From the NCBI GenBank assembly GCA_030583865.1, contig CP129479.1:260744-324743 (forward strand): DNA of 64,000 bases. The letters are read 5' to 3'. How positions within the stretch are numbered: the first letter of the stretch is position 1; each line of letters begins with the position of its first letter. This document shows positions 27,831 to 53,118 of the stretch, piece after piece. The DNA is from Thermodesulfobacteriota bacterium (lineage in GTDB: Bacteria > Desulfobacterota > GWC2-55-46). The notes below the pieces were generated by a model that saw only the letters and a list, made by a program, of their open reading frames with translations, searched no databases and had not been told where the DNA came from. The position numbers and the translations under genes are program-made.

Positions 27831-27927
27831 CATAATATAATGCGGAACGCTTAACCGCCGGCTATAATAGCAGCGACCGCGCGCCAGCATGGGCTTAAAA
27901 AGCATCCGGAAGAAGGAGGTTTGTGGA

Positions 27928-29094
27928 ATGAAGAGAAAAGCCTTGATCGTCCTTACCGCTATGGCCGGGCTGTTTGGGGCCGCGCCCCCGTCTGCCGCCG
28001 AGTTCGCCTTCGGCGAGGAGACGAAAGGGGTCACATTGGCCCAGGGCGAGAGCGACCTCACGATACGGGTGAGGCTCCAGCCGAGGTTCGATTTCGGGGA
28101 TATAATCACGAGCACCGGCGGAGACTCGTACGCGACAGAGAGCGACATGTATTTCAGGAGGGCGCGCCTTGAGATGGGCGGCAACCTCGTATCGAAGAAG
28201 ATAAAATACAACGTGACCTTTGACGCAGACAAATGGGACAAGGCCGGGAACAACAATAAGATATCTCTCAAGTACGCGTATGTCGCCCTCACCCCGGACG
28301 AGGCCTATTCGTTCATGTTCGGAAAGGAGAAGCTGCCGTACTCGAGGGAAGAGCTCATATCAAGCTCGACCCTCCTTTTCATAGAGCGGCCCGCTTCTGT
28401 CGATGCGTCAAGGGACGTCTTCGGCGCGAGCAACGCCTATTACCAGCCAAAGGCGGCTGTATTCGGGAAGCTATTTGAAGGGGCCATCGGCTATGAGGTC
28501 GCCGTGGCAGACGGCTGGCAGAACGGGGAGGCGATACAAACTGGCCCGACCACGGTCTACAAGGCCGCGCCCCTTCTTGCGACAAGGGTCGAGATATCGC
28601 CGACCGGTTGGGTGGAGACGAAGAAACAAGGCTCATATCTCGGCAAGGGGCAGCACATAACGGCCGGGGTGAGCCTTGCCGTGCAGAAGGACATTGATTA
28701 CGCGAGCGGCGGCGGTGAGGACAGGACCCTCTGGGGAGTGGACGTATCGACGCACCTCCAGGGCCTTACCGCGAGCGCGGAGTATATCTCCTGGGAGGTG
28801 GACTCAACCCTCGGCAAGACCAGGCCCGAAGGCTGGTTCCTGCAGGCCGGGTATTTCATGGAGGAGCTTAACATCGAGCCCGCGGCCAGGTACGAGGTCT
28901 TTGACGAGAACGCGAAGGCCGCTGACATGAAAGAACGTACCATGACCCTCGGCGTCAACTGGTATGGCAAGGGACACGGCTTGAAGGTGCAGGCCAACTG
29001 GGCGCATACCCGGTTCGAGTCCAATGCGAGCGGCGGGCTTTCGAACGACAAATCCAGGGACATACTGCAGATTCAAGGGCAGCTGTATTTCTAG
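27928..29094 (+). CDS. Phosphate-selective porin (OprP/OprO family)
   Basis: 388 residues from ATG 27928, which has AAGGAGG 8 nt upstream; the longer in-frame start at 27889 is unlikely. A signal peptide (residues 1-22, ending SAA) precedes a barrel that opens LTIRVRLQPRFDFGD and continues YFRRARLEMGGNLVSKKIKYNVTFDAD, the phosphate-selective porin O/P pattern. It ends in aromatic phenylalanine (GQLYF), as outer-membrane barrels do. It lies 1.1 kb upstream of pstSCAB, so a role in phosphate entry fits. Substrate selectivity cannot be confirmed from sequence, and no Pho box was found before it. Confidence 0.82.
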   Translation: MKRKALIVLTAMAGLFGAAPPSAAEFAFGEETKGVTLAQGESDLTIRVRLQPRFDFGDIITSTGGDSYATESDMYFRRARLEMGGNLVSKKIKYNVTFDADKWDKAGNNNKISLKYAYVALTPDEAYSFMFGKEKLPYSREELISSSTLLFIERPASVDASRDVFGASNAYYQPKAAVFGKLFEGAIGYEVAVADGWQNGEAIQTGPTTVYKAAPLLATRVEISPTGWVETKKQGSYLGKGQHITAGVSLAVQKDIDYASGGGEDRTLWGVDVSTHLQGLTASAEYISWEVDSTLGKTRPEGWFLQAGYFMEELNIEPAARYEVFDENAKAADMKERTMTLGVNWYGKGHGLKVQANWAHTRFESNASGGLSNDKSRDILQIQGQLYF

Positions 29095-29144
29095 ATAGTA
29101 AGGCTGGGTGCGCGTTCTGCGCACCCAGCCTTACTATCTTTTAC
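29093..29144 (+). terminator. Rho-independent terminator after the porin gene
   Basis: A perfect 21-bp stem: 29093-29113 pairs with 29119-29139, loop GTTCT, then TTTTAC. The stem starts inside the stop codon TAG 29092-29094. The core is AAGGCTGGGTGCGC and its complement. Confidence 0.92.
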
Positions 29145-29265: not shown

Positions 29266-29479
29266 ATTGCAAGAAGGCCTTTTCCGCGCTTCCGCGCGGT
29301 TTTTGAGGGTAAGGCTCGCTTGCTAACCCCCTCCCCCATCCCGTGAACGGGCCCCTGAAGTCGCTTTGCTCCTGACTTCCCCGGCCCGTTCACGCTCTTC
29401 CTCCCTAAGGCTACGCTCGCCTTACCCTCCGGGGTTTGTTAAAGACAAAAAAAATCTCACAGCACTTTTGTTTTTGCAT

Positions 29480-29768
29480 CATTGCTGTCCCGTTAACTTC
29501 CCCCCTTTTCTAAAAGGGGGGCGAGGGGGGATTAAAACATTCGAAAAATCCCCCTCTTATCCCCCTTTTTCAAAGGGGGATGATTCCGTATCTTATCTTC
29601 AGGTCGGAATTCATGTCATGAAAGCATAGCGCCGCAGGTCATAGGCAATAAAACACCTTCTTTTTGCTACGACCCCGTTACCTTATTGAATACCTTTAGA
29701 GAAACGGTCAGAAACCCCCGGCCTTCAGGCCGGGGAGCGGTTCATTAAAGATTAATGGGACAGCAGTG
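29480..29768. mobile_element. 289-bp MITE-like element with terminal inverted repeats and target duplication
   Basis: The ends are CATTGCTGTCCCGTTAA (29480-29496) and, inverted, CACTGCTGTCCCATTAA (29752-29768), which agree at 15 of 17 positions. TTTTTGCAT flanks it directly on both sides (29471-29479 and 29769-29777), while the uninterrupted target exists once at 52901-52909. It carries no transposase gene. Inside are CCCCCTTTT-type palindromes and the hairpin CCCCGGCCTTCAGGCCGGGG at 29716-29735. Confidence 0.8.
29716..29743 (+). other. Hairpin resembling an IS200/IS605 right end
   Basis: CCCCGGCC-TTCA-GGCCGGGG followed by AGCGGTTCA resembles the subterminal hairpin and end of IS200/IS605-group elements, which in intact elements also forms part of the guide-like RNA of TnpB. 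No tnpA or tnpB is present. It lies inside the 289-bp element. Confidence 0.35.
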
Positions 29769-30163
29769 TTTTTGCATTTAAAACAACCCAGGGCATAAGG
29801 CGGAGCGAACATGGGGATGGGGGAGGGGCGGGCGAGGCGGGGCAGCAGGAGCGAGGCCGAAGGCCGAGCGACATAAGGGCCTAGCCCGGAGGAGGGAGGC
29901 GGAAAGAGAGCGGAGCCTTATGCCCAAAAAGAGCGCGGCAGCGCGATAAAGGGCCTTTTGGCAATAAGGCAAAGCAGGTGATGCCGCTCCTAAGGATGAC
30001 AAAGGAGAGAGGCGAGACCCTCGAACCGCACGGAGGCGCGGAAAGGGTCTTTTCCGTATACTAAGAAAGCGCGGAGCCCTTATGCCCAAAAAGAGCGCGG
30101 CAGCGCGCAAAAAGGCCTTTTGCACCAGCCCTGGGTACCGGAGCGGTGCCCCCTTTTTCCATA

Positions 30164-30242: not shown

Positions 30243-31277
30243 ATGAAAAAGATACTACTTTTAGCGCTGATATTCCTGGGTTTGTCGGTCGGCACTGCCT
30301 CGGCCCAGCTCATAAACGGCGCTGGCGCGACATTCCCGTACCCGCTCTACTCCAAGTGGGCGTATGAATACAACAGGGCTACAGGGGTGAGGCTCAACTA
30401 CCAGTCCATCGGGAGCGGCGGCGGCATAAGGCAGGTCACGGCAGGCACAGTGGACTTCGGCGCGTCGGACGCGCCCCTCGGGGCAAAGGAGCTCGGGGAC
30501 GCGGGCCTCGTACAGTTCCCGATGGCGGTCGGCGGGGTCGTGCCGGTCGTGAACCTCGAAGGGGTGAGCCCCGGAAGCCTCCAGCTCACCGGAGAGGTCC
30601 TTGCCGACATCTTCCTCGGGAAGATAACCAAATGGAACGACCAGCGGATAGCCGCGCTCAACCCCGGGGTGAAGCTCCCTGACACTAAGATAACTGTCGT
30701 ACACCGCTCTGACGGAAGCGGCACGACATGGATATTCGCGAACTACCTGTCAAAGGTGAGCCCCGAATGGAAGGGCAAGGTGGGCTTCGGCACGGCGGTC
30801 AATTGGCCCGCGGGCGTCGGCGGCAAGGGTAACGAGGGTGTGGCCATGTACGTAAAGAGGATGAAGAACTCCATCGGATACGTCGAGTACGCGTACGCCA
30901 TCCAGAACAAGCTCACCCACGCAAAGCTCAGCAACAAGGCGGGGAGCTTTGTAGAGCCCTCCATGGAGACTTTCCAGTCAGCCGCGGCCAACGCCGACTG
31001 GAAGGGCACGCCAGGTTTCGGGGTAGTCCTAACGGACCAGTCCGGAAAAGACTCGTGGCCCATTGCAGGCGCGACCTTCATACTCGTAAAGAAAAACCAG
31101 TCGGACTGCAAAAAGGCTACAGAGGTCTTGAAGTTCTTTGGTTGGGCCTACAGGAACGGGGCGGAAATGGCGAAGTCGCTCGATTACGTTCCCATCCCGC
31201 CCGCAGTGTACGGCCTCATGGAGGCAGCGTGGGCGCGGGATATAAAATGCAATTCGCAGCCGGTCTGGGGCAAATAG
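30243..31277 (+). CDS. pstS: Phosphate ABC transporter, periplasmic binding protein
   Basis: 344 residues with a signal peptide (1-21, cut near ASA). The phosphate pocket motifs are INGAGATFPYPLYSKW, QSIGSGGGIRQ, DFGASDAPL and HRSDGSGTTWIF, all close to E. coli PstS. It captures phosphate in the periplasm and delivers it to PstCA. The Pho box 40-80 bp upstream and the pstC, pstA and pstB genes downstream fix its identity. A terminator-like hairpin follows it. Confidence 0.96.
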   Translation: MKKILLLALIFLGLSVGTASAQLINGAGATFPYPLYSKWAYEYNRATGVRLNYQSIGSGGGIRQVTAGTVDFGASDAPLGAKELGDAGLVQFPMAVGGVVPVVNLEGVSPGSLQLTGEVLADIFLGKITKWNDQRIAALNPGVKLPDTKITVVHRSDGSGTTWIFANYLSKVSPEWKGKVGFGTAVNWPAGVGGKGNEGVAMYVKRMKNSIGYVEYAYAIQNKLTHAKLSNKAGSFVEPSMETFQSAAANADWKGTPGFGVVLTDQSGKDSWPIAGATFILVKKNQSDCKKATEVLKFFGWAYRNGAEMAKSLDYVPIPPAVYGLMEAAWARDIKCNSQPVWGK

Positions 31278-52582: not shown

Positions 52583-52699
52583 GCTGGTTTTTGTATACAG
52601 TATCCAGTGTTGAATCGGCGGCGAAATGTGCCTTATTCAGTATGAGATTTGGATATAGGGCCGCTTTTTTGATTTACCGAAAAGACCTTTTGCGCGTTG

Positions 52700-53118
52700 C
52701 CGTTATTTTTGCATGAGCAAAACACCATTAATCGCGCTGCCGCGCTCTTTTTGGGCATAAGGCTCCGCTCTCTTTCCGCCCCCATCCTCCGGGCTCGGCC
52801 TTATGTCGCTCGGCCTTGGGGCCTCGCTCCTGCTGCCCCGCCTCGCCCGCCCCTCCTCCAACCCTATGTTCGCTCCGCCTTATGCCCTGGGTTGTTTTAA
52901 ATGCAAAAACAAAAGTGCTGTAAAAGTCCTTTTTTGTCTTGAAACAAACCCCGGAGGGTAAGGCGAGCGTAGCATAAGGGAGGAAGAGCGTGAACGGGCC
53001 GGGGAAGCCAGGAGCGAAGCGACTTCAGGGGTCCGTTCACGGGGTGGGGGAGGGGGTTAGCAAGCGAGCCTTACCCTCGAAAACCGCGCGGCAGCGCGGA
53101 AAAAGGGCTTTTTGCACT
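52700..53118. repeat. Large (~420 bp) repeat, copy F, uninterrupted
   Basis: Inverted copy of 29266-29965 without the 289-bp insertion. It shows GCGCTGCCGCGCTCTTTTTG, GGCATAAGGCTCCGCTCTC, then CCCTGGGTTGTTTTAAATGC, AAAACAAAAGTGCTGTAAAA and GGGTAAGGCGAGCGTAGCAT, ending GCGGAAAAAGGGCTTTTTGC. The empty target ATGCAAAAA is at 52901-52909. It appears to be non-coding. Confidence 0.83.

What the first reader, a model, noticed from the sequence alone, without database searches (positions are those of the whole stretch)
29471..29777. A 289-bp non-autonomous element with terminal inverted repeats, 9-bp target duplication and its empty site in the same window
CATTGCTGTCCCGTTAA and CACTGCTGTCCCATTAA bound 29480-29768; TTTTTGCAT is duplicated at both edges. 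In the matching large repeat at 52.7-53.1 kb the target occurs once (52901-52909) with no insertion. That is direct evidence of transposition into a repeat. The element has no transposase and seems to contain other repeats, including an IS200/IS605-like end hairpin.
Basis: partly seen in the sequence, partly recalled or inferred. Interest (0 to 1): 0.7.

Follow-up and report, generated by a model that had tools for sequence, protein, structure and literature searches.

The report
IS4-type MITE inserted in a repeat

Summary
The 52.9-kb site is a true pre-insertion state. About 18 other genomic copies of the host repeat cross this point without the element, and several carry a single exact TTTTTGCAT. 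The orthologous locus of a sister species has the host repeat but not the element. The parent type is identified: complete 1273-1274-bp IS4-family insertion sequences in other bacteria have the same 17-bp ends, 9-bp duplications and a DUF4372+DDE_Tnp_1 transposase. In named genomes, 35 of 53 TIR pairs have a 9-bp duplication with at most one mismatch; the null rate is 0.04%. So this is a MITE of an IS4 element (IS4Sa-like by ends, size, duplication length). No such transposase was found in this genome, so the copy is probably an immobile relic. Its interior is a mosaic: a C/G-rich triple-hairpin module shared with one-ended copies in the genus, plus a 51-bp IS200/IS605-like hairpin unit. Preferential insertion into palindromes was tested and not supported. 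New member of a known kind; modest interest.

The parts
29471..29479 (+). target-site duplication, left copy (TTTTTGCAT)
   Evidence: identical to 29769-29777; single copy in empty host repeats
29480..29768 (+). 289-bp non-autonomous IS4-type element (MITE)
   Evidence: no ORF with transposase similarity; same ends as complete IS4-family elements
29480..29496 (+). left terminal inverted repeat CATTGCTGTCCCGTTAA
   Evidence: 16/17 identical to the ends of full-length IS in L252/L253
29498..29583 (+). C/G-rich triple-hairpin module, shared with TIR-bearing copies in own genome and genus
   Evidence: DNA folding z = -4.15
29584..29691 (+). interior shared (92% over element positions 1-212) with the truncated copy at G000:C1:2383544-2383748
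29695..29746 (+). single-hairpin unit related to a 150-bp repeat present at about ten other loci; IS200/IS605-like by form
   Evidence: DNA folding z = -4.28
29752..29768 (-). right terminal inverted repeat CACTGCTGTCCCATTAA
   Evidence: identical to the G039 IS4 end
29769..29777 (+). target-site duplication, right copy (TTTTTGCAT)
29268..29479 (+). left part of the interrupted host repeat (up to the insertion point)
   Evidence: 92% identical to the reverse strand of 52901-53115
29769..29962 (+). right part of the interrupted host repeat
   Evidence: 93% identical to the reverse strand of 52718-52911
52690..53115 (-). uninterrupted copy of the host repeat; empty target TTTTTGCAT at 52901-52909

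Best explanation
[quoted passage not shown] It carries the two ends that a DUF4372/DDE_Tnp_1 transposase is expected to recognise, and no gene. A transposase supplied in trans would have bound the CAYTGCTGTCCCRTTAA ends and joined the element to a 9-bp staggered cut in the AT-rich linker of one copy of a ~400-bp multicopy repeat; gap repair then duplicated TTTTTGCAT. Shown here: the ends, the 9-bp duplication, the empty site in many paralogous copies, the same ends and duplication length on complete IS4-family elements, and no detectable IS4 transposase in this genome. Inferred: cut-and-paste by a trans-acting IS4 transposase that has since been lost or was only transiently present, and present immobility. 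The interior grew as a mosaic, including a separate hairpin unit found elsewhere in the genome; the order of those events is inferred.
For: Ends and duplication. Empty site: about 20 host-repeat copies aligned through the site, of which L135, L136, L138, L143 and L144 plus the 52.9-kb copy carry exactly one TTTTTGCAT. Orthologous G005 locus between the same two genes has the host repeat without the element. Full-length parents: L252 (Zhongshania antarctica, 1273 bp, duplication ACCAATCAG) and L253 (gammaproteobacterial MAG, 1274 bp, ATACTGTCC) with CACTGCTGTCCCGTTAA at both ends and an IS4 transposase (NF033592, 260-269 bits against cut-off 115; PF14294 + PF01609); G055, same class as the window genome, 1274 bp, duplication ATACGATAA, variant ends CASTASTGTCCG. 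Family statistics: 35 of 53 TIR pairs have a 9-bp duplication with at most 1 mismatch, against 1 at 8 bp and 1 at 10 bp; null rate 0.036% from mismatched flank pairs. MITEs with such ends and 9-bp duplications in relatives: G021 x3, G020, G013. No IS4 transposase in own genome.
Against: Outside about 17-20 bp of each end the element shares nothing significant with the full-length elements, so it is not a simple internal-deletion derivative of any element seen. No intact second copy exists in this genome: the copies at C1:2383544-2383748 and C1:474272-474381 have one TIR only. Mobilisation by an IS4 transposase was not observed, only inferred.
Confidence: 0.93

Rival explanations
1. The element belongs to an IS1595-family insertion sequence, because a 1060-bp segment with the same TIRs in relative G049 encodes an IS1595 transposase.
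For: G049:C356:994-2053 has both TIRs and an IS1595 ORF between them.
Against: The IS1595 gene lies between its own ends (GGTAATTRTAAAAG...) nested in a remnant whose left end matches the G039 IS4 element, including its transposase start; that locus has no duplication; the window genome has no IS1595 candidate; complete IS4 elements carry the ends with 9-bp duplications.
Confidence: 0.02
2. The 52.9-kb copy lost the element by precise excision, so the empty site is derived and the element is ancestral in the repeat.
For: Both copies are in one genome, and deletion between 9-bp repeats can be precise.
Against: About 18 further copies of the host repeat across the genome, down to 74% identity, all lack the insertion; the sister-species orthologue lacks it too.
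Confidence: 0.01
3. The 289 bp is a chance assembly of repeats (CCCCCTTT hairpins and a REP-like hairpin) with coincidental ends.
For: The interior consists mostly of repeats found elsewhere.
Against: Exact 9-bp duplication, end identity with complete insertion sequences, and the same pairing in tens of other genomes.
Confidence: 0.01
4. A refinement of the best explanation: the 289-bp form is an internal deletion of a larger, gene-carrying IS4-ended transposon, because the copy at C1:2383544-2383748 abuts a 230-aa orphan gene.
For: 92% identity over positions 1-212, then divergence into that gene in the other copy.
Against: No right TIR was found downstream of that gene, the 230-aa protein matches no family, and the junction could equally be a rearrangement.
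Confidence: 0.12

Closest known systems
IS4 family, IS4Sa subgroup (De Palmenaer et al. 2008, PMC2266710)
   Same: Ends begin CA with T at position 9; 9-bp duplication within the 8-10 bp range; the complete elements with these ends are 1273-1274 bp (range 1150-1750) and have the YREK motif (Y-2-R-3-E-6-K) in the transposase.
   Different: The 289-bp element itself has no transposase gene and shares only the terminal 17-20 bp.
MIC231 / IS231 mobile insertion cassettes (cited in PMC2266710)
   Same: Non-autonomous cassettes with the ends of an IS4-family element, moved in trans (from established knowledge).
   Different: Different IS4 subgroup, ends and host; no passenger gene here.
Chunjie MITE of Geobacter uraniireducens (described in the review PMC10969869)
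   Same: Small (178-235 bp), TIRs and direct repeats, many partial copies, one in a phosphate-uptake operon; ours lies upstream of a PstS-like gene.
   Different: Its TIR sequence could not be compared (paper not held); the similarity is a lead only.
IS200/IS605-type palindromic units (REP/PATE-like)
   Same: The embedded 51-bp unit has a GC-rich hairpin and follows TTTAG; the related 150-bp repeats sit after TTTTTAG within another repeat without a duplication.
   Different: No TnpB was found and the only Y1-type transposase in the genome is a weak match at a locus not among those carrying the unit.

Membership tests
IS4 family (IS4Sa-like), as a non-autonomous derivative | ends beginning CA, T at position 9 (PMC2266710 Table 1) | tested here: met
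   CATTGCTGT / CACTGCTGT
IS4 family (IS4Sa-like), as a non-autonomous derivative | direct repeat of 8-10 bp | tested here: met
   9 bp, exact
IS4 family (IS4Sa-like), as a non-autonomous derivative | same ends on a complete element encoding an IS4 transposase | tested here: met
   L252, L253; G039 partial, with the identical right TIR
IS4 family (IS4Sa-like), as a non-autonomous derivative | YREK motif in the transposase of the complete relatives | tested here: met
   IYKSRWQ(I/V)ELFFKWIK in L086 and L253; IYKARWQVELFFKWIK in L252
IS4 family (IS4Sa-like), as a non-autonomous derivative | placement of the transposase within the IS4Sa subgroup by tree | not tested
   no reference set of subgroup transposases was at hand; subgroup assigned from ends, size and duplication length only
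MITE | short, non-coding, TIRs plus target duplication, no transposase | tested here: met
MITE | multiple copies with both ends in the same genome | tested here: not met
   one two-ended copy; two one-ended relatives. Multi-copy two-ended sets exist in other genomes. Usual for MITEs rather than strictly required
MITE | transposition in trans by the parent transposase | not testable with these tools
   needs an experiment
IS1595 family | ends belong to an IS1595 element | tested here: not met
   IS1595 in G049 has its own ends and is nested in an IS4 remnant
IS200/IS605 (embedded hairpin unit only) | associated TnpA (Y1) or TnpB with matching ends | tested here: not met
   no TnpB; one weak Y1 hit elsewhere

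The most novel reading that the evidence does not exclude
IS4-type MITEs act as vehicles that spread the abundant CCCCCTTT-N-AAAGGGGG hairpin repeats: in this genus several copies consist of one TIR plus the same ~104-bp triple-hairpin module with a near-constant inner boundary and no second TIR, as if the module itself were the retained (perhaps terminator-like) unit.
Probability: 0.12. Interest if true: 0.45.

Novelty: new member of a known kind. Interest (0 to 1): 0.25.

Why it matters
It gives a clean, base-resolved example of an IS4-type MITE with its empty site, and ties a TIR (CAYTGCTGTCCCRTTAA) that recurs as 130-350-bp elements with 9-bp duplications in many proteobacterial genomes to a specific transposase type. 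No paper in the held library prints these end sequences in this context, so the family seems unnamed there. The mechanism itself is textbook.

Tried and rejected
(1) IS1595 as parent: first suggested by G049, rejected as a nested insertion. (2) Preferential insertion into palindrome centres, suggested by this site and by two insertions in a 130-bp palindrome (L038, L080): dyad symmetry at 41 empty sites was no better than at control positions (mean rank 0.58, 3 of 41 at or below 0.05). (3) Rfam: no match in the window. (4) A right-hand TIR for the partial copies at C1:2383544 and C1:474272, or a 9-bp duplication around the one-ended copies: none convincing. (5) The CCCCCTTT hairpins as always MITE-derived: short or diverged copies mostly have no adjacent TIR, only the long (about 80 bp or more) high-identity ones do. 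(6) Chunjie paper not held, so its TIR was not compared.

Full report
Observation. The 289-bp segment 29480-29768 begins CATTGCTGTCCCGTTAA and ends TTAATGGGACAGCAGTG (15 of 17 complementary), and TTTTTGCAT stands directly on both sides at 29471-29479 and 29769-29777. Nothing else in the window resembles these ends within three mismatches. The element lies between a Porin_O_P gene (27889-29094) and a PstS-like phosphate-binding protein gene (30243-31277).

Empty site. The reverse strand of 52690-53115 is an uninterrupted copy of the sequence on both sides of the element, with a single TTTTTGCAT at 52901-52909. A search of the complete 2.75-Mb genome with this copy gave 66 matches. About twenty alignments run through the target point with no insertion; the 52.9-kb copy and L135, L136, L138, L143 and L144 have exactly one TTTTTGCAT there. 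The idea that 52.9 kb is a deletion derivative is therefore not tenable. In sister species G005 the same intergenic region carries the host repeat, with a shorter linker, and no element.

Parent. The TIR motif was searched in 59 related genomes. In G022, G039 and others it lies near contig ends, as insertion sequences do in short-read assemblies. In G039 the sequence inside the end reads into the start of a DUF4372-type IS4 transposase. In G055 a complete 1274-bp element with variant ends has a 400-aa DUF4372 + DDE_Tnp_1 transposase and an exact 9-bp duplication, ATACGATAA. Two of these, L252 (Zhongshania antarctica) and L253, are complete 1273/1274-bp elements with CACTGCTGTCCCGTTAA at both ends, exact 9-bp duplications and IS4 transposases. 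G049, which at first suggested IS1595, is an IS1595 element with its own ends inside a remnant of the IS4 element.

Family statistics. Of 53 inward-facing TIR pairs in the named genomes, 35 are flanked by a 9-bp duplication with at most one mismatch; one pair passes at 8 bp and one at 10 bp. Mismatched left and right flanks give 0.036% at 9 bp. Most of these elements are 141-345 bp, that is MITEs. Targets are 74% A+T, with a weak preference for A at the first and T at the last position. Five more MITEs of this type with 9-bp duplications occur in G021, G020 and G013.

Anatomy. Positions 1-104 of the element (TIR plus three C/G-rich hairpins; DNA folding z -4.15) recur with a single TIR at several places in the genus. 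Positions 1-212 recur at 92% at C1:2383544-2383748, which then runs into a 230-aa orphan gene. Positions 216-267 are a single-hairpin unit (z -4.28) related to a 150-bp double-hairpin repeat at about ten loci; those repeats follow TTTAG, commonly inside another palindromic repeat, with no duplication, as IS200/IS605-type elements do, but no TnpB and only a weakly matching Y1 protein elsewhere were found. Only the last 17-20 bp at each end match the complete IS4 elements.

Mechanism. Shown: end identity with IS4-family elements, 9-bp duplication, ancestral empty site, no detectable IS4 transposase of the DUF4372, DDE_Tnp_1 or NF033592 kind in the genome. Inferred: trans-mobilisation by an IS4 transposase that is no longer present, integration with a 9-bp stagger, and present immobility.

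Comparison and verdict. By published criteria (PMC2266710, Table 1: ends CA......T, 8-10 bp repeats, 1150-1750 bp) the parent type fits the IS4Sa subgroup; the transposase tree was not made. It works like, and is best filed as, an IS4-derived MITE, with the caveat that in this genome it has only one two-ended copy. This is a new member of a known kind.

Noticed in passing
window 29268-29962 (interrupted) and 52690-53115; 66 blast matches genome-wide, e.g. G000:C1:62053-62452, 230002-230396, 2328844-2329239: The host repeat is a ~400-bp GC-rich, imperfectly palindromic, two-armed intergenic repeat family with an AT-rich central linker, present in about 30 or more copies and also in sister species; its origin is unknown.
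   Followed up: partly
L040-L049 (e.g. G000:C1:2571937-2572086): A nearly identical 150-bp double-hairpin repeat is inserted repeatedly at TTTTTAG^AGGTTGCC within a ~130-bp palindromic repeat, without a target duplication; it resembles site-specific IS200/IS605-type non-autonomous elements.
   Followed up: partly
L053, L054, L055, L164, L165, L010: One-ended copies: a single IS4-type TIR plus a ~104-bp triple-hairpin module with a near-constant inner boundary and no second TIR or duplication.
   Followed up: partly
L084 458-1517 (G049:C356:994-2053): An IS1595 element nested in a decayed IS4-family element; a trap for automatic assignment of these TIRs.
   Followed up: yes
L075, L089, L098 (G021): Three related MITEs (130, 217, 163 bp) with CACTACTGTCCGGTTAA ends, all inserted in the same GGTTCAGGTTRCAAAC repeat with 9-bp duplications.
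   Followed up: no
L038 16880-17572 (-): A 230-aa orphan protein with no Pfam or NCBIfam match directly follows the truncated copy of the element.
   Followed up: no
window 29093-29139: A perfect 21-bp inverted repeat with a T-rich tail after the porin gene, terminator-like.
   Followed up: no
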